Assembly (NCBI RefSeq): GCF_003439925.1
Contig: NZ_QQRR01000002.1
Span: 186,001 to 250,000, forward strand
Length of the DNA stretch: 64,000 nucleotides
Origin: Haloprofundus halophilus
GTDB taxonomy: Archaea > Halobacteriota > Halobacteria > Halobacteriales > Haloferacaceae
Reading direction: 5' to 3'
The notes beneath the pieces were generated by a model. It saw only the letters and a list, made by a program, of their open reading frames with translations, had not been told where the DNA came from and made no database searches. The position numbers were made by a program, and so were the translations under genes. Shown here one piece after another: positions 34,020 through 44,759 of the stretch (within the stretch, counting starts at the first letter, position 1; every line of letters starts with the position of its first letter).

Positions 34020-36962
34020 CTACGCGTCGGGGACCGTAAACGAGAACGTCGCTCCCTCGCCGGGGTCCGAGTCGGCCCAGATATCACCGCCGTGGCGCTC
34101 GATGATCCGCTGACAGACCGCGAGTCCGATGCCGGTCCCATCGTACTCCTCGTGGGTGTGAAGTCGGTTGAAGACCTCGAAAATACGATCCGTGTCGTCG
34201 GGGTCGATACCGATTCCTTCGTCGTGCACCGAGACGGCCCACTCGTCTCCCGCTCTCTCGGCCGAGATGTGAACGCGCGGGGGTTCGTCACCGCTGTATT
34301 CAATCGCGTTGTCGAGCAGGTTCTGGAACACCTGCCGGAGCTGGCTTGCGTCACCCTCGACTCGAGGGAGCGGGTCGGACGTCACGTCGGCGTCGCTTTC
34401 TTCGATCCGTAACTGCAGGTCTTCGAGGACCTCGTCGAGAACTGAATCGAGATCGGTCGGTTCGAGCGGGTCGCCCGACGTCTCGATGCGCGAGTACTGG
34501 AGCAACCCCTCGATCATCGCGCGCATGCGGTCGGCACCGTCGACGGCGAACGCGAGGAACTCCTCGGCGTCTTCGTCGAACGCGTCACCGTGGCGACGCT
34601 CGAGCAGTTGCAGGTAACTCGATACCATCCGGAGCGGTTCCTGGAGGTCGTGGGAGGCGGCGTAGGCGAACTGTTCGAGCCGCTCGTTGGACTCTTCGAG
34701 GTCGGCGACTAGCTGTTCGAGTTCCTGCTGGTACTGGCGGCGCTCGATCGCCTCCGCGAGAACGTTCGCGATACTCTGGACGAAGGTCACGTCCTCCTCG
34801 GAGTACTCCCGTTTCTCGGTGTCGTGGGTGCCGAGGATTCCCCACGGCTCGTCGAACGGGCCGATGACGGTGCTGAGACCGCTTCGGACGTCGTGGCTCC
34901 GCAGCAACTCGGGGCCGTCGAAGCGCGAGTCCGTCTCGAGGTCTTCGACGACTATCGGGTGATCGTTCGCCAGCGTGTACGCCGCCTGGGAGTCCGATTC
35001 GGTGGCTGATACCCTAGCCTCGCCGACGATGCCGTCGCGCCAGCCGACGCCTTGACGGAGCAACAGCTCTTCGGCGTGCGAGTCGAGGTCGAGCACCTTG
35101 CAGTACTCGTTGTCGAGAGCGTCCGCCACCTGGCGCGACGCTCGGTCCATGAGTTCGTCGAGGTCGTCGTTTTCGAGCGCGAACTGTCCGAGGTCGGCCA
35201 CGGTCTGCTGCTGATTGGCGCGGCGTTCGAGTTCGCGTTCGCGCTCCTTGCGGTCGGTGACGTCGGTGATGACCCCCTCGATATCGACGAAGTTGCCGTT
35301 GTCGTCGAAGACGCCGCGCCCGAAGTCCCTGACCCACCGGCTCTCGCCGTTGGCTGTCTCGATTCGATAGGTCACGGAGAACGATTCGCCGTCGGCCGCG
35401 GCTTCGTGGATCTGCTCCCACAGATTCGGGTTCTCCGTCTGGTCCATGACGTCGTCCCCCCAGGAGACGGCATCGGATTCGAGCGTTTCGGCTTTGTACC
35501 CGGTTATCTCCCGACAGGCGTCGCTGACGAACTCCATCGGCCAACCCTGTTCGTTACGGCACCGATAGACCATCCCGGGGACGTTGTCGATCAACGTCGA
35601 GAACTGCCGTTCGCGCGTCTTCCGCTCCGTGATATCGTTCTGAACGGCGACGAATCGGTCGATCTCGCCGTGCTCGTCGGTCACGGGCGCGATCGTCTGC
35701 TCGGCGTAGTACAACGCTTCGTCCTTTCGCTGGTCGATAATCTCTTCTTCCCACACTTCGCCGGCCCGGACCGTCTTCCAGAGCCGTTCGTAGTAGTCGT
35801 CGGTGTGTTCGCCCGACTGGAGGATGCTCGGCGTCTCCCCCACCGCCTCCTCGGCCGCGTAGCCCGTGGTCTCTTCGAACGCCGGGTTGACGTACGTAAT
35901 CTCGCCGCCGGGGCCGGTCATGTATATCGCGTGACCTGTAGCTTCGACCGCGCGCTCGAAGCGTGCGAGCTCCCGCTCGCGTTCTTTCTTCTGTGTGATG
36001 TCTCGGAAATAGACCGATAGGCCCGTATCCGATGGGTAGATGGCGTTGTAGAACCACCTGCCGGCCGGCTCGTAGTACTCCTCGAAAATCACGGAGTCCT
36101 GCGTTTCGAGGGCTTCGTACAGCGCGTCTTCGAGGGGGGCCGTGGAGACGGCTTCGTCGCGGATATCTGCACCGATGGCGGACTCGTCTACGCCCAGCGT
36201 CTCCATCGCCTGATCGTTCAGATACCTGAACCTCAACTCGTCGTCGAGCGCGTAGAACCCGTCCGAGATGCGCTCGAACACCTCGTCGAGTTCGGTTTCG
36301 AGTTCGTCGCGCTGGCGTTTGACACGCTCCGTCTGCGTCTCGAGGCGACGTTCGTACTCCCGTCGGTTGGTCATGTCCCGGGTGACTTTGGTGTACCCCT
36401 CGAGCGTGCCGTCGTCGTTTCGAATCGCGGAGATTGTCACGTTCGCCCAGAACGTCGACCCGTCGGCTCGGACCCGCCACCCCTCATCTTCTACCGAGCC
36501 GTCTCGTGCGGCCTTTTCGAGGTTCGCCTCCGGGACACCGGCCGCGCGCTCGTCGTCGGTGTAGAACGTCGAGAAGTGTTCGCCGACGATTTCGTCGGCC
36601 GTGTAGCCCTTGATCTGTTCGGCACCTGAGTTCCACGTCCGGACGCGTCCGTCCGGGTCGAGCATGAAGATAGCGTACTCCTCGGTCGCCTCGACGAGCG
36701 AGCGAAACTCGGCGTCCGATGTGTCCGATTCCGCCGTGGACGTTCGTTCGTCCGGGACCGGCTGCCACCAGACGCGTCCATTGCCGCCGACTTTCTTCGT
36801 TTCGAGTCGACCGCGATCGGCGAGGCGTTCGAGGCGCTCGTAGGCGCTCCGACGGCCGAGGCCGGTTCGGTCTGCGATCTCGGTCGTCGTCACGGGTGCC
36901 CCTCCCGCTTCGAAGAGAGCGAGGGTCTCTCGAAGTGCGTCGGTTAACTGTACGTCGCTCAC
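34020..36962 (-). CDS. multi-PAS sensor histidine kinase with N-terminal winged helix
   Basis: This 980-residue cytoplasmic kinase begins with a winged helix (residues about 1-65; TTTEIADRTGLGRRSAYERL). Four PAS domains run from about residues 85 to 580, with YAIFMLDPDGRVRTWNSGAE as the first. A GAF domain follows from about 595 to 740. Next come HisKA with FAYAASHDLQEPLRMVSSYL (His near 770) and a HATPase with NLLDNAIEYSG, DEGIGI and GTGIGLAVCQRIIERHGG. There are no membrane segments. The GAF and kinase halves closely match those of the kinase at 42714. No receiver gene is adjacent, so the response partner may be elsewhere. Confidence 0.93.
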   Translation of the reverse strand: MSDVQLTDALRETLALFEAGGAPVTTTEIADRTGLGRRSAYERLERLADRGRLETKKVGGNGRVWWQPVPDERTSTAESDTSDAEFRSLVEATEEYAIFMLDPDGRVRTWNSGAEQIKGYTADEIVGEHFSTFYTDDERAAGVPEANLEKAARDGSVEDEGWRVRADGSTFWANVTISAIRNDDGTLEGYTKVTRDMTNRREYERRLETQTERVKRQRDELETELDEVFERISDGFYALDDELRFRYLNDQAMETLGVDESAIGADIRDEAVSTAPLEDALYEALETQDSVIFEEYYEPAGRWFYNAIYPSDTGLSVYFRDITQKKERERELARFERAVEATGHAIYMTGPGGEITYVNPAFEETTGYAAEEAVGETPSILQSGEHTDDYYERLWKTVRAGEVWEEEIIDQRKDEALYYAEQTIAPVTDEHGEIDRFVAVQNDITERKTRERQFSTLIDNVPGMVYRCRNEQGWPMEFVSDACREITGYKAETLESDAVSWGDDVMDQTENPNLWEQIHEAAADGESFSVTYRIETANGESRWVRDFGRGVFDDNGNFVDIEGVITDVTDRKERERELERRANQQQTVADLGQFALENDDLDELMDRASRQVADALDNEYCKVLDLDSHAEELLLRQGVGWRDGIVGEARVSATESDSQAAYTLANDHPIVVEDLETDSRFDGPELLRSHDVRSGLSTVIGPFDEPWGILGTHDTEKREYSEEDVTFVQSIANVLAEAIERRQYQQELEQLVADLEESNERLEQFAYAASHDLQEPLRMVSSYLQLLERRHGDAFDEDAEEFLAFAVDGADRMRAMIEGLLQYSRIETSGDPLEPTDLDSVLDEVLEDLQLRIEESDADVTSDPLPRVEGDASQLRQVFQNLLDNAIEYSGDEPPRVHISAERAGDEWAVSVHDEGIGIDPDDTDRIFEVFNRLHTHEEYDGTGIGLAVCQRIIERHGGDIWADSDPGEGATFSFTVPDA

Positions 36963-38465: not shown

Positions 38466-39698
38466 TTACCCCCGTTTCTCGCCGATAGGTTCTTGCCAAA
38501 GGAGGATGGCGCCCGAGCCCCCGGCGAGTACGACGCCACCGACGGCGAGTGCGAACAGCGGCGAGACCGTATCAGAGATAACCCCACTCCCGAGTTGGAA
38601 CGGGACGACCGCCAGCCCGCTGACCATCGCCATCGCGCTCAGCACGGTGGCGCGGCCGAGCGTCTCGATGCGGTCGTTGATGTACTGTCCGGCGAACGAG
38701 CGGGTGACGTCCGAGAGCCCTCGTATCAACAGGAACGTCGGAAGCGCCAGTAACGGGACGAAGTACATCCCGACCAACGCACCGCTGACGGCAAACGGCA
38801 GAACGAGAAACCACGTTCGCAGTCCCACGGTCCGCTCGATGGTACCGGTGTAGTAGCTGAGCACTGCGCCGACGATACTGTACGCCGCGTAGAACCACCC
38901 GAGCAGGCTCTCGACCTGTGACTGAGCGACCCCGAGGTCGAGAACGACAGTCTCGAAAATCGGCTGGAGGAAGACGAACACGAGGTACGTCACACCGGCG
39001 TACAGAACGTAGTAGTACAGGAGGAACGCCCGGAGTTGGCGGCGAGTGAGGACATCACGGACGATGCCGACCGTTTGGCGAAGACTCAGCGCCTCCGAGT
39101 TCGTCCGCTTGTACGTCTCCGGATCGTCGAGGGAGAGCAGTACGACGACCCCGATGCTCGTCACGCCGGCAGCGACGAACCACGGGTACGAGAGGTCGAT
39201 GCTGCCGAGATACCCGCCGACCACGGCCGCACCGGCACCGACTGCCAGCGCGACCGACTCTCCGCGCCCTCTCACGCGAGCGAACTCGTCTTCCGAGAGG
39301 TCGTCGGTGAGCGTGTCGTAGAGCCACGCGTCTTCGCTGCCCGAACGAAAGTTGTAGCCCATCGACCAGCAGACGTAGAGGCCCGCCAGCGGGAGAAACG
39401 AATTCGAGAGGCCGATACCGAGAAGCGTCAGCGCGATGATCGACGTCCCGATGAGGAGACTGTTGCGCCGTCCGACTCGGTCACCGATGTACCCAGTCGG
39501 GATCTCCCCGAACAACGTCGTCAGATTGTACAGCGCCTCTAAAATCGCAATTTGGGTGAACGAGAGCCCCTGTGCCAGAAAGAAGAGGTACATGATGGGC
39601 CGGTAGAACTCGACTGCTTTCGTCGCCTTGTAGAGATAGTACTTCAGAATACTCACAGAGAGCGCCCACCGAGTCCCGATACCCGCACAGCCAGTCAT
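38466..39698 (-). CDS. MFS transporter
   Basis: This 410-residue protein of about 12 helices has the major facilitator motif GEIPTGYIGDRVGRRNSLLI (G-x3-D-x-G-R-R) near residue 60. A second half contains ALVGMYFVPLLALPTFLLIR. The N-terminal MTGCAGIGTRWALSVSILKY is hydrophobic. It resembles haloarchaeal MFS proteins for sugars or antibiotics, and the substrate is unknown. The start at 39696-39698 gives the canonical length. Confidence 0.88.
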   Translation of the reverse strand: MTGCAGIGTRWALSVSILKYYLYKATKAVEFYRPIMYLFFLAQGLSFTQIAILEALYNLTTLFGEIPTGYIGDRVGRRNSLLIGTSIIALTLLGIGLSNSFLPLAGLYVCWSMGYNFRSGSEDAWLYDTLTDDLSEDEFARVRGRGESVALAVGAGAAVVGGYLGSIDLSYPWFVAAGVTSIGVVVLLSLDDPETYKRTNSEALSLRQTVGIVRDVLTRRQLRAFLLYYYVLYAGVTYLVFVFLQPIFETVVLDLGVAQSQVESLLGWFYAAYSIVGAVLSYYTGTIERTVGLRTWFLVLPFAVSGALVGMYFVPLLALPTFLLIRGLSDVTRSFAGQYINDRIETLGRATVLSAMAMVSGLAVVPFQLGSGVISDTVSPLFALAVGGVVLAGGSGAILLWQEPIGEKRG

Positions 39699-39877: not shown

Positions 39878-41209
39878 TCACAGGAACTGTGTCGCGAGAG
39901 AGCGTGACTTCTCTCGGTCGATGCTGTCAAATGCATCGTCCTGCTCCAGTGTCTCGAGAACAGCCGGTACTGGCTCCTTGAACGTGAAGAGTAGGTGCAC
40001 TCCTCGTTTGAACCCACCACTGGTGCGGTCACTCGAAACAACACCGTAAGTTGCTGCTTTGTTAATGTGACTGTTTACGGTTTCCTGTGTATACACATCA
40101 CGACCAGAACTGTTGCAGATCACCTGGTAGAGTTGGTAGACGACCGGACTCGGTGCCTTTCCGTCGTTGACGTCCGCGATAACTGCAGCTGCGTACAACG
40201 CGAGTTTCTTGTGCAGCGACATTCCATCAACGATCTCTAATACGCGGTTTTTGACGAGCGAGTCGTTTGCAGAGCGAACATGTTTTTCGGTGACAACTGT
40301 GTCTCCGTTTTTGTTTGCGTCTTCACCAGCGTCTCTGAGCAGATCGATTGCCCGACGGGCGTCACCTTCGTTTTTCGCAGCGTGTGCTGCGACGAGGTTG
40401 ATGACGCTTTCTTCGAGTGCGTCTTCTTTGAAAGCGTCACGCCGGCGATTGAGAATCTCGATGAGTTCATGGGCTTCGTAATCTGAGAAGTGGATGCCGG
40501 TCGGATTGTAGGAACTGTCCGTGCGACTGTCGAGGTTCTCACGGAACTTCGGATGGTTCGTGATAACAACCGTCGAAATGAGCGTGTTGACGTGCTGTTC
40601 GGCCATCGCACGACTCAGACTGTAGAGCAGTCGAGAGTACGCAGGTTCATCTTCACCCTTACTCCCAGTGAGTGCGTCGATCTCGTCGAGAATGAAGACA
40701 AGCGAGTCGAAATGATCTTCGACGATTTCGTAGAGTCGAACGTACTTTGCATCTGTTGATACGCCTTTTCGGGGGAGTTCCCATGCAACACCTGCTTTGT
40801 GAGCGGTTTGCTGGCCGAGTTTCCACACGGCACGATCGAGAGTGTGTGACTCCATGGCTTTGAAGTTCACCGACACGAAGTCGAAGCGGATACCGTTCGT
40901 TTCTGCGCGCTCTTTCACTTTCTCGGCGACCGCTTTGACTGTGAGGCTCTTTCCGGTACCGCTCGGTCCGTACAAGAGGAGGTCTGGAGGGCGTTCACCG
41001 TCGAGTGTATCGCGGAACGCTCTGGCTTCTGCGGCCAGTTGCTCGTCACGCCCGTAAATGCGTTCGTGGTCGACGATGGTGGTGGGGTCGACGAGTTGTT
41101 TGTTTTTGAAGACGGTAGTGCGTTTTCCGTCGAGAATACTCTCTACAACGGACTCTGTGGACTGGTCGGTGTCAGGGGAATTTGAGGTATCTTCGCCGGG
41201 AGTGTCCAT
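39878..41209 (-). CDS. cdc6: Orc1/Cdc6 replication initiator
   Basis: This 443-residue AAA+ initiator has Walker A (GPSGTGKSLTVKAV), Walker B FILDEIDALTGSKG and sensor-1 VVITNHPKFRENLDSR. A winged-helix DNA-binding domain occupies the C-terminus. The start MDTPGEDTSNSPDTDQ (ATG 41207-41209) is preferred over a 47-residue extension that would read into the iteron array. The protein would bind the repeats starting 39 bp upstream of its own start and load the MCM helicase. It is more Asn/Lys-rich than the core genes, consistent with an accessory origin or a chromosomal secondary one. Confidence 0.93.
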   Translation of the reverse strand: MDTPGEDTSNSPDTDQSTESVVESILDGKRTTVFKNKQLVDPTTIVDHERIYGRDEQLAAEARAFRDTLDGERPPDLLLYGPSGTGKSLTVKAVAEKVKERAETNGIRFDFVSVNFKAMESHTLDRAVWKLGQQTAHKAGVAWELPRKGVSTDAKYVRLYEIVEDHFDSLVFILDEIDALTGSKGEDEPAYSRLLYSLSRAMAEQHVNTLISTVVITNHPKFRENLDSRTDSSYNPTGIHFSDYEAHELIEILNRRRDAFKEDALEESVINLVAAHAAKNEGDARRAIDLLRDAGEDANKNGDTVVTEKHVRSANDSLVKNRVLEIVDGMSLHKKLALYAAAVIADVNDGKAPSPVVYQLYQVICNSSGRDVYTQETVNSHINKAATYGVVSSDRTSGGFKRGVHLLFTFKEPVPAVLETLEQDDAFDSIDREKSRSLATQFL

Positions 41210-41247
41210 TGATGGTGTGTTTGTTGACCGACCTGCATTAACCTCTT

Positions 41248-41673
41248 TCGAAATGAACGGGGCTGTGTCGAAATGAAGGGGCCACACTCGAAATGAAATC
41301 AGTACCATCGTCGAAATGTCGACACCGATGTCGAAATGAAGAGGCCGCACTCGAAATGAAACACCAACCAGCGTCGGAATGACCCTGTCAATCTCGAAAT
41401 GAACACCCTATACTCGAAATGAACTCCCTATCGCCCCAAAACGACCCCCACCCACCAATCGAAATGAAATCGCTCACAAACACTCTTTCCACACGCACCC
41501 AGAGAACCATCTGTTTCCTCGAAATGAAATTCATACTGAAAACGCCGAAAGCCGTGTAAGCCTCGTCCACAGACCTCGAAACCCAAATACGACTAGATAG
41601 GCCTCCGATTCATTTCGAAGACGGTGTGTGAGACTCCCTTCTCTACTCTCTTTCTTGAGAGATTTCATTTCGA
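41248..41673. repeat. iteron array TCGAAATGAA, candidate replication origin
   Basis: Copies on the + strand begin at 41248, 41268, 41288, 41311, 41331, 41351, a degenerate one near 41374, 41394, 41414, 41459 and 41519. Two inverted copies begin at 41609 and 41664. Spacing in the core is 20 or 23 bp, about two helical turns. The array lies between cdc6 and yihY, in a less GC-rich intergenic space. This is the arrangement expected for an Orc1/Cdc6-recognised origin. Confidence 0.85.
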
Positions 41674-41807
41674 AATTCGGGAGTGTGACTTCCCTCTCAC
41701 CACTCCACATTACTGTTGAGTTCGCCTCGCTGAAGGCAGCCATAGTTGACGCTATCTCAGTCTTCAACGTGCCTACAGCATCTCTCAACTTCGTGCACGA
41801 GAGGATA

Positions 41808-42690: not shown

Positions 42691-42713
42691 GGTTGCGCTA
42701 CGGAGTTGGGTCA

Positions 42714-44759
42714 ATGAGTTCGAGGAACTGGACCTCTGCTGATGTTGCCGGACGGAAACTCATCGTCACCCTCGGTGGGGTTTTCGTCGCACTCGTCGTC
42801 AGCTATCCGTTTCTCCCGCTCGTCGACGACACGTCGTCGGATCTCTGGGCCGTACTCGGTATTCTCGTTGGTATCCCCAGCCTTGTCCTGTTGTACGGCG
42901 GCTACCGGCTGCCCCGAACCGATATCCGGCCCGAACTCTATTCTACCATCGGGATATGGTGTCTACGCGGTATAGCGGTTAGTCTCGCCATCTTGGTTCC
43001 TATCGTTCTCGCAAACGACGACCCAAATATCGTCGCAAATACACTCCTGCTCACGGCACTGGGCAGTCTCGCGGGCTTCGGTGCGGGAAGCTACGACGCG
43101 CGGGCCAAAACACGGCAACTCGAACTCGAAGAGACGGTCGACCAGCTGGAAACCTCGAACGAGCGCTTAGCACGACACCAGCAGTACACCGACGACGTTC
43201 TCGACGCGATCCACGACGTGTTCTACGTCATAGACGAAAATGGCTCTCTCGAGCGGTGGAACCAAAGCCTCACGGAGGTGTCCGGCTACACGGACGAGGA
43301 GATCTCGTCGATGGCCGCGGCCGACTTCTTCGAGGGCAACCGTGATGCAGCCGTGGCTGCGATCCGCAGCGGCTTCGAGAGCGGTTCAGTGACTGCCGCG
43401 TTCGAGCTACGCACCAAGGACGGTGACGACGTCCCCTTCGAGTTCGTTGCCTCCACGCTTGAGGACACGTCGGCTGACGCTGTTTTAGCGGGCATCGGAC
43501 GTGACGTTACGGGCCGCATCGAGCGCGAACAGCAGCTCCAGCGACGGGCTCGACAGCAACAATCAGTGGCCGAGCTGGGCCAGTTCGCGCTCGAAAACGA
43601 CGACCTCGACGAACTCATGTCCGAAGCGTCTCGTCGGGTAGCGGACGTCCTCGACAACGAGTACTGCAAGGTGCTCGACCTCGACTCGAACGACGAGCTT
43701 CTGCTCCGCCAGGGCGTCGGTTGGCGCAACGGAGTCGTCGGCGAAGCTAGGGTATCCGCAATCGAAGCGAAGTCCCAGGCAGCGTACACGCTGGCGAACG
43801 ACGATCCGATAGTCGTCGAAGACCTCGAGACGGACCCGCGCTTCGACGGCCCCGGGTTGTTGCGGAGCCACGCCGTCCGAAGCGGCATCAGCACCGTCAT
43901 CGGTCCGTACGACGAGCCGTGGGGGATATTGGGTACCCACGACGCGGAGCCGCAGACGTTCACCGACGAGGACGTCAACTTCGTCCAGAGCGTCGCCAAC
44001 GTGCTCGCGGAAGCCATCGAACGCCACAGATACAAAGTGGAACTCGAGCAGCTAGTCGCCGACCTCGAAGAGTCCAACGAGCGGCTTGAACAGTTCGCCT
44101 ACGCCGCCTCTCACGACCTTCAAGAACCGCTCCGGATGGTGTCGAGCTATCTGCAGTTGATCGAGGATCGAGCCGACGAAGAACTAACCGAGGAGACCGA
44201 AGAGTTCCTCGAATTCGCCGTCGACGGCGCCGACCGCATGCGTGATATGATACACGGGTTACTGGCGTACTCGCGCGTGGAGGGCCAGGGGAACACACTC
44301 GAACCGGTTGACCTCAACGAAGTGGTCGGAGACGTGCGCGACGACCTCGACGTGTGTATAACCGAGAGTGATGCCGACGTAGCCGTCGCGGAACTGCCTC
44401 GCGTGATGGGAGACGAACGTCAGTTGCGTCAGGTGTTTCAGAACTTGTTGAACAACGCTCTCGAGTACAGCGGGGACGAGCGGCCACGGGTGCGTATCTC
44501 TGCCGACCGGAACCGTTCGATGTGGGAGATATCGGTTCGCGACGAGGGAATCGGCATCGGGCCGGACGAGCAGGACCGTGTCTTCGAGGTGTTCCAGCGG
44601 CTCCACCCCCAGAACGACCACGGGGGGTCGGGCATCGGCCTGGCGCTGTGCGAGCGGATCGTCGAACGCCACGGCGGCGATATCTGGGTCGAGTCCGAGC
44701 CGGGTGAGGGAACGGTGTTCTCATTTACTCTTCCTGCAGAGGACGAGTATGACGAGTAA
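42714..44759 (+). CDS. membrane-bound PAS-GAF sensor histidine kinase
   Basis: This 681-residue kinase starts with about four hydrophobic segments within residues 15-120 (LIVTLGGVFVALVVSYPFLP onward). A coiled-coil leads into one PAS domain (residues about 150-265) and a GAF domain (about 285-420). HisKA follows, with FAYAASHDLQEPLRMVSSYL (His near 468), and the HATPase has NLLNNALEYSG, DEGIGIGP and GSGIGLALCERIVERHGG. The GAF-to-end part is closely similar to the kinase at 34020. The stop overlaps the response regulator gene by 11 bp, and that receiver is the likely partner. Confidence 0.93.
   Translation: MSSRNWTSADVAGRKLIVTLGGVFVALVVSYPFLPLVDDTSSDLWAVLGILVGIPSLVLLYGGYRLPRTDIRPELYSTIGIWCLRGIAVSLAILVPIVLANDDPNIVANTLLLTALGSLAGFGAGSYDARAKTRQLELEETVDQLETSNERLARHQQYTDDVLDAIHDVFYVIDENGSLERWNQSLTEVSGYTDEEISSMAAADFFEGNRDAAVAAIRSGFESGSVTAAFELRTKDGDDVPFEFVASTLEDTSADAVLAGIGRDVTGRIEREQQLQRRARQQQSVAELGQFALENDDLDELMSEASRRVADVLDNEYCKVLDLDSNDELLLRQGVGWRNGVVGEARVSAIEAKSQAAYTLANDDPIVVEDLETDPRFDGPGLLRSHAVRSGISTVIGPYDEPWGILGTHDAEPQTFTDEDVNFVQSVANVLAEAIERHRYKVELEQLVADLEESNERLEQFAYAASHDLQEPLRMVSSYLQLIEDRADEELTEETEEFLEFAVDGADRMRDMIHGLLAYSRVEGQGNTLEPVDLNEVVGDVRDDLDVCITESDADVAVAELPRVMGDERQLRQVFQNLLNNALEYSGDERPRVRISADRNRSMWEISVRDEGIGIGPDEQDRVFEVFQRLHPQNDHGGSGIGLALCERIVERHGGDIWVESEPGEGTVFSFTLPAEDEYDE

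What the first reader, a model, noticed from the sequence alone, without database searches (positions are those of the whole stretch)
41248..41673. Phased 20-bp iterons beside cdc6: candidate replication origin with an unusual motif
Ten direct copies of TCGAAATGAA (one degenerate) run upstream of cdc6, mostly 20 or 23 bp apart, with two inverted copies beyond. The spacing of about two helical turns and position next to an Orc1/Cdc6 gene fit an initiator-binding array. The motif differs from the widely described long haloarchaeal ORB with a G-string, so this would be an initiator-specific, iteron-like origin.
Basis: partly seen in the sequence, partly recalled or inferred. Interest (0 to 1): 0.7.

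Follow-up and report, generated by a model that had tools for sequence, protein, structure and literature searches.

The report
Initiator-specific ORB array upstream of cdc6
Next to a haloarchaeal replication-initiator gene lies a conserved array of short DNA repeats that travels with that gene across the group; it looks like a portable replication origin fused to the initiator's own promoter, although base composition gives no sign that it is a long-used origin in this genome.

Summary
The array is real: nine exact and two degenerate direct copies of TCGAAATGAA plus two inverted exact copies at 41248-41673. They make up 11 of the 12 exact copies in the 3.47-Mb genome. It belongs to the adjacent Orc1/Cdc6. 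All but one of the 50 relatives found at 73-81% identity, across several haloarchaeal families, have the array directly upstream; in the exception the array is there but a TnpB insertion separates it from the gene. Ten sampled proteins at about 45% identity lack it. Over 392 genomes, a 20-bp-phased repeat pair and this initiator co-occur (27 of 28; Fisher 7e-33). The motif is the dyad half of a longer element, read on the other strand: ATTTCATTTCGAANACGGTGTGTGAGGG. So it is an origin recognition box (ORB) with a T-interrupted G-tail, related to the G-string ORB of the sister initiator. Anatomy is two-tiered: two inverted full-length ORBs, a spacer of usually 70-82 bp, then 20-bp-phased tail-reduced copies, the last abutting the initiator's TATA-like promoter in every orthologue inspected. 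Best reading: a mobile initiator-origin cassette with built-in autoregulation. GC skew flips at the canonical oriC1 but not here, so it may be weak, recent or dormant in this genome.

The parts
39878..41209 (-). orc1/cdc6 initiator gene (443 aa from ATG at 41209), adjacent to the array
   Evidence: TIGR02928 347.5 bits over a 181 cut-off; Cdc6_lid, AAA and Cdc6_C winged-helix domains; closest solved structures 2qby_A (4.9e-49) and 2v1u_A (2e-41)
41235..41257 (-). proximal repeat overlapping the inferred BRE/TATA of the leaderless initiator promoter (TTCATTTCGA-AAGAGG-TTAATGC, about 25 nt before the ATG)
   Evidence: the same order TTCATTTCGA-(A/C)AARGG-TATT.. then ATG in the 33 orthologue loci inspected; promoter assignment inferred from sequence
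41248..41436 (+). three 63-bp units of the phased proximal array (copies at 41248, 41268, 41288, 41311*, 41331, 41351, 41374*, 41394, 41414; * degenerate)
   Evidence: a spacing of exactly 20 bp is the commonest among proximal copies in 14 loci
41459..41468 (+). isolated direct copy, 45 bp beyond the phased block
41519..41528 (+). innermost direct copy, bordering the spacer
   Evidence: equivalent copy in most orthologues
41529..41608 (.). 80-bp spacer between the oppositely oriented copies; candidate unwinding region (50% G+C)
   Evidence: spacer usually 70-82 bp in orthologues; not consistently AT-rich
41607..41634 (+). inner inverted full-length ORB, ATTCATTTCGAAGACGGTGTGTGAGACT
   Evidence: only match to TTCATTTCGANNACGGTGTGTG with up to 3 mismatches in the genome; cross-genus consensus
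41662..41689 (+). outer inverted ORB, TTTTCATTTCGAAATTCGGGAGTGTGAC, 55 bp from the inner one
   Evidence: pair spacing 54-57 bp in 13 of 14 loci, 69 in one

Best explanation
This is the cognate binding array of one Orc1/Cdc6 subfamily: an initiator-origin cassette in which the same ORB serves two tiers. Tier 1 (origin core, inferred): two inverted full-length ORBs with a GT-rich tail, a spacer of usually 70-82 bp, and the first opposite ORB, where Orc1/Cdc6 would assemble, open the DNA and recruit MCM. Tier 2 (inferred): tail-reduced, mini-ORB-like copies packed every 20 bp up to and overlapping the BRE/TATA of the initiator's leaderless promoter, where Orc1/Cdc6 filling would shut off its own transcription and titrate the protein. 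Shown here: gene-motif linkage, the layout, similarity to the sister ORB, promoter overlap, and loss or replacement of the gene with ORBs left behind. Inferred: binding, repression and initiation. In this genome the cassette sits in a low-GC region (about C2:207-300 kb) on what looks like an oriC1 replichore, without a skew flip. It is therefore probably an acquired, weak or dormant origin rather than a main one.
For: 11 of 12 genomic copies are at this locus, and none of the 14 other orc loci in this genome has such an array. Arrays were found at every orthologue in two sets: 20 in-family loci and 30 named loci from Haloferacaceae, Natrialbaceae and Haloarculaceae (one truncated by its contig end; the sets overlap in species). 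The one apparent exception (Halorubrum CBA1229) keeps the array, cut from the gene by a TnpB insertion. Ten ~45% identical proteins lack it. Over 392 genomes the contingency table is 27/1/9/355, p=7e-33. The layout is conserved: inverted pair 54-57 bp apart, 20-bp phasing. The motif shares its core with the sister G-string ORB. The proximal copy abuts the promoter in 33 loci. In G006, ORBs and flanks are retained where gene plus proximal array were replaced by a different orc.
Against: GC skew flips at oriC1 (+0.021 to -0.031) but not at the array (-0.011 to -0.009; 36th percentile of C2 positions). The spacer is not clearly AT-rich (50% G+C here, up to 62% in relatives). The RR pair that contacts ORB in the A. 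pernix and Sulfolobus winged helix is ET here. Nine genomes carry a phased repeat pair without an intact linked orc gene. No binding or replication data exist.
Confidence: 0.7

Rival explanations
1. Operator only: the array is an autoregulatory or titration site of this Orc1/Cdc6 and does not start replication here.
For: The proximal copy abuts the promoter in all 33 loci inspected; no skew flip; winged-helix arginines replaced; Sulfolobus Orc1-2 is a non-initiator Orc1 that binds its own promoter (PMC9738581).
Against: The array runs more than 400 bp upstream with an inverted far pair whose spacing is conserved; the inner inverted full-length ORB is the best-conserved element and lies about 400 bp from the promoter. 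The far pair survives next to other orc genes without the promoter array. No other motif copies that would suggest a regulon.
Confidence: 0.2
2. Active replication origin of the main chromosome in this strain, in regular use.
For: Complete inverted ORB layout beside an intact initiator gene.
Against: No skew flip, whereas oriC1 has one; the locus lies in a low-GC region; 15 orc genes in the genome.
Confidence: 0.2
3. Relic of an integrated plasmid: formerly an origin, now not functioning.
For: Low-GC region; the cassette is on plasmid pHrrPV6 in Halorubrum; ORB arrays without their orc gene exist.
Against: The gene is full length with intact Walker motifs, and the core motif is kept exact in 9 of 11 direct copies while spacers diverged.
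Confidence: 0.2
4. Chance or coding repeat, or a non-specific tandem duplication.
For: A 63-bp tandem unit is present.
Against:: the same motif and phasing recur beside orthologues with different spacers.
Confidence: 0.01

Closest known systems
Haloarchaeal orc1/cdc6-associated origins with G-string ORBs (Wu et al. 2012, PMC3528665; Wu et al. 2014, PMC3936714)
   Same: Initiator-adjacent intergenic region, inverted ORBs, initiator-specific ORB sequence, shared core with the sister initiator's G-string ORB.
   Different: G-tail interrupted by T and reduced in the proximal copies; up to 11 direct copies on one side phased at 20 bp; proximal copy abuts the initiator promoter in all orthologues inspected.
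Mini-ORB arrays of archaeal origins (Methanothermobacter, Sulfolobus oriC2; from my own knowledge, primary papers not held)
   Same: Many short ORB-derived copies bound by Orc1/Cdc6.
   Different: Different core sequence and initiator clade; strict 20-bp phasing and 63-bp units here.
Haloarcula hispanica oriC2 with downstream ORB cluster titrating Cdc6E (PMC3936714)
   Same: Extra ORBs beyond the origin core, with a proposed regulatory role.
   Different: There the cluster is downstream of the gene; here the extra copies lie between origin core and promoter.
Bacterial iteron plasmids (Rep-iteron-operator; own knowledge)
   Same: Works alike: phased direct repeats plus an operator copy at the initiator promoter.
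   Different: Initiator is an AAA+/winged-helix Orc1/Cdc6, not a bacterial Rep; a similarity of logic, not of descent.
Sulfolobus Orc1-2 non-initiator regulator (PMC9738581)
   Same: Orc1 paralogue able to bind its own promoter.
   Different: No dispersed motif copies or regulon here; motif differs from ANTTTC; inverted origin layout present.

Membership tests
Archaeal orc1/cdc6-associated replication origin | Intergenic region directly adjacent to an orc1/cdc6 gene | tested here: met
Archaeal orc1/cdc6-associated replication origin | Repeated ORBs in opposite orientation flanking a spacer | tested here: met
Archaeal orc1/cdc6-associated replication origin | AT-rich unwinding element between the ORBs | tested here: inconclusive
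   spacer 50% G+C in the window, 36-62% in relatives; most of C2 is 65-69% G+C
Archaeal orc1/cdc6-associated replication origin | Cognate ORB sequence inherited with the initiator family | tested here: met
Archaeal orc1/cdc6-associated replication origin | Autonomous replication or in vivo initiation | not testable with these tools
   experiment needed; the skew proxy shows no flip
Haloarchaeal G-string ORB | ORB core followed by a run of G | tested here: inconclusive
   core TCGAANACGG as in the sister ORB, but the tail is GGTGTGTGAG, not an unbroken G run; reduced in proximal copies
Orc1 initiator of oriC1 type | Winged-helix arginine pair contacting ORB (RR of A. pernix and Sulfolobus Orc1-1) | tested here: not met
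   ET at these positions; the sister with true G-string ORBs has ET as well
Sulfolobus Orc1-2-type global regulator | Motif in promoters of many genes | tested here: not met
   only one copy elsewhere in the genome, in an apparently coding stretch
Bacterial iteron plasmid replicon | Rep-family initiator | tested here: not met
   the initiator is Orc1/Cdc6

The most novel reading that the evidence does not exclude
A transferable archaeal replicator in which one ORB sequence is used in two forms, full-length for initiation and truncated 20-bp-phased for initiator self-repression or handcuffing. It would be an archaeal counterpart of iteron control, and the origin core can outlive its initiator and be inherited by a different Orc.
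Probability: 0.35. Interest if true: 0.65.

Novelty: new variant of a known kind. Interest (0 to 1): 0.48.

Why it matters
The origin survey of Wu et al. 2012 accepted only ORBs with a G-string, which left about a third of the orc/cdc6 genes it examined without an assigned origin. This family shows how an initiator and its ORB can diverge together while the layout is kept, and it ties origin and initiator promoter into one conserved unit. That makes initiator autoregulation in haloarchaea directly testable. The G006 case is a natural experiment in initiator replacement, and the arrays without an orc gene raise the question of whether ORBs can be used by a non-cognate Orc.

Tried and rejected
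Direct alignment of TCGAAATGAAGGGG with the crenarchaeal mini-ORB TGGAAACNAAGGGG: dropped after orthologues showed that the G-rich tail lies on the other strand. Literature search for the motif string: 245 papers held one of the strings; the 15 listed were all unrelated. Relatives in viral contigs: none, for protein or long ORB; phages only about 24-27% identity. GC skew as positive evidence: rejected after calibration on oriC1 showed the opposite polarity. Natrinema J7 vector paper: no ORB sequences among the passages found. Supplementary ORB lists of Wu 2012 could not be opened (no supplement look-ups allowed), so prior listing of this family there cannot be excluded. Structure prediction was not run because the domain make-up was already clear by sequence.

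Full report
OBSERVATION. There are nine exact and two degenerate direct copies of TCGAAATGAA, and two exact inverted copies. Direct spacing is 20,20,23 | 20,20,23 | 20,20 | 45 | 60, so the proximal part is a 63-bp unit repeated about three times; its spacers have diverged while the core has stayed. Shuffles give 3.4 near-matches per window, against 20 observed. In the whole genome 11 of 12 exact copies lie here; the other is in an apparently coding stretch. The array fills much of a 598-bp intergenic region between the start of the orc1/cdc6 gene and the 3' end of a YihY/BrkB-type gene, so it has only one promoter to serve.

THE PROTEIN. The 443-aa product is an Orc1/Cdc6 with AAA+, lid and winged-helix domains. 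Its nearest solved relatives are Sulfolobus Orc1-1 and A. pernix Orc1. The genome encodes 15 Cdc6-lid proteins. The nearest paralogue, L010 on a 72-kb contig, is 42% identical.

LINKAGE OF MOTIF AND INITIATOR. Within the family, 20 genomes (the window's included) have a protein at 73% identity or more, then there is a gap down to about 46%. All but one of these loci carry the array directly upstream, and none of the ten ~45% loci does. The exception, on a Halorubrum plasmid, still has the array, split from the gene by a TnpB insertion. A scan of named genomes gave 30 loci in Natronorubrum, Haloterrigena, Halobiforma, Natrinema, Natronococcus, Natrialba, Haloferax, Halorubrum, Haloquadratum, Haloarcula and Halorientalis. 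All have the array; one is truncated by its contig end. The two sets overlap in species. An unbiased count over 392 genomes of the order found a 20-bp-phased pair in 36 and the initiator in 28, with 27 shared (Fisher p=7e-33; the genomes are related, so the p-value overstates independence).

WHAT THE MOTIF IS. Aligning copies from 17 loci and viewing them in place shows that the inverted outer copies are part of a 28-29-bp element. On the strand that reads away from the spacer it is ATTTCATTTCGAANACGGTGTGTGAGGG. Proximal copies keep TTCATTTCGANNACGG weakly. The sister initiators have ORBs such as TTTACACATCGAAGACGGGGGGTGTGT, identical over TCGAAGACGG. A TTC-N5-GAA dyad with the spacing of the classical ORB is visible (own comparison, suggestive only). 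The sequence change is matched in the protein: the RR pair that touches ORB in A. pernix and Sulfolobus Orc1 is ET both here and in the sister.

ANATOMY. Conserved features are an inverted pair, usually 54-57 bp apart; a spacer, mostly 70-82 bp; one or two separate opposite copies; and a block spaced exactly 20 bp next to the gene. In the 33 loci inspected the last copy runs into (A/C)AARGG and a TATA-like stretch, with a start codon about 25 nt further on. This reads as BRE/TATA of a leaderless gene, so a bound Orc there should block transcription. The promoter reading and the repression are inferred.

GAIN, LOSS AND REPLACEMENT. In G006 the flanks and the inverted ORB pair match the SHRA6/G007 locus (92% over 1.4 kb), but gene and proximal array are gone and a different Orc (28% identical) stands there. 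In two Haloferax genomes (G025, G027) the inverted pair, in G027 with the spacer and first opposite ORB, sits beside yet another Orc. In the 392-genome search nine genomes have phased copies without an intact linked orc; several lie by integrase, resolvase or transposase-like genes (named from their sequences, not by a family search), and L172 has a fragment of this orc. Whether these are relics or are used by other Orcs is open.

IS IT AN ACTIVE ORIGIN HERE? As calibration, GC skew around the genome's canonical Orc1 (L009, recognition helix RRVTDLISELDMLGI) flips from +0.021 to -0.031. At the array it does not (-0.011 to -0.009), and C2 as a whole has its turning points at its ends and near 713 kb. 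The locus lies near the left side of a low-GC region, about 207-300 kb of C2, where G+C falls from about 67% to 45-62%. This fits a recent or dormant cassette; skew cannot exclude a recently acquired active origin. Haloarchaea are known to have dormant origins that take over when the main ones are deleted (PMC4595724, title and abstract only).

VERDICT. The array is the cognate ORB array of this initiator (about 0.9), arranged as origin plus operator (0.7 for the combined model), and probably not a dominant origin in this genome. It is a new variant of a known kind. I found no description of this family in the papers held, but the supplementary ORB tables of the 2012 survey could not be read.

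Noticed in passing
L123 5350-7102 (G006) versus L082/L043: Initiator swap at one locus: inverted ORB pair and flanks kept, orc gene and proximal array replaced by an unrelated Orc.
   Followed up: partly
L166-L174; L125 6372-6421: Phased copies of the same ORB core without an intact adjacent orc gene in nine genomes, several beside integrase/resolvase/TnpB-like genes; L172 carries an orc remnant.
   Followed up: partly
L025 (C4 of the own genome): The sister orc has six G-string ORBs in its downstream region, several of them about 43 bp apart, plus others upstream; resembles the H. hispanica oriC2D titration cluster.
   Followed up: no
L027 upstream of its orc gene: Another initiator (L012) has GTGCCGCTGTA repeats with 21-bp spacings close to its start, so promoter-proximal phased arrays may be commoner than this family.
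   Followed up: no
window about 21000-64000 (C2 about 207-300 kb): Low-GC region with the orc cassette towards its left side.
   Followed up: partly
window 34020-36962 and 42693-44759: Two PAS-type histidine kinases with very similar C-terminal halves flank the orc neighbourhood in opposite orientation.
   Followed up: no
C2 ends (G000): The two contig ends share 186 bp in inverted orientation (99%), suggesting breaks at a mobile element; C1 and C2 may be one chromosome.
   Followed up: no
window 38579-38675: ARAGORN tRNA call with a four-base anticodon inside the MFS gene; probably spurious.
   Followed up: no
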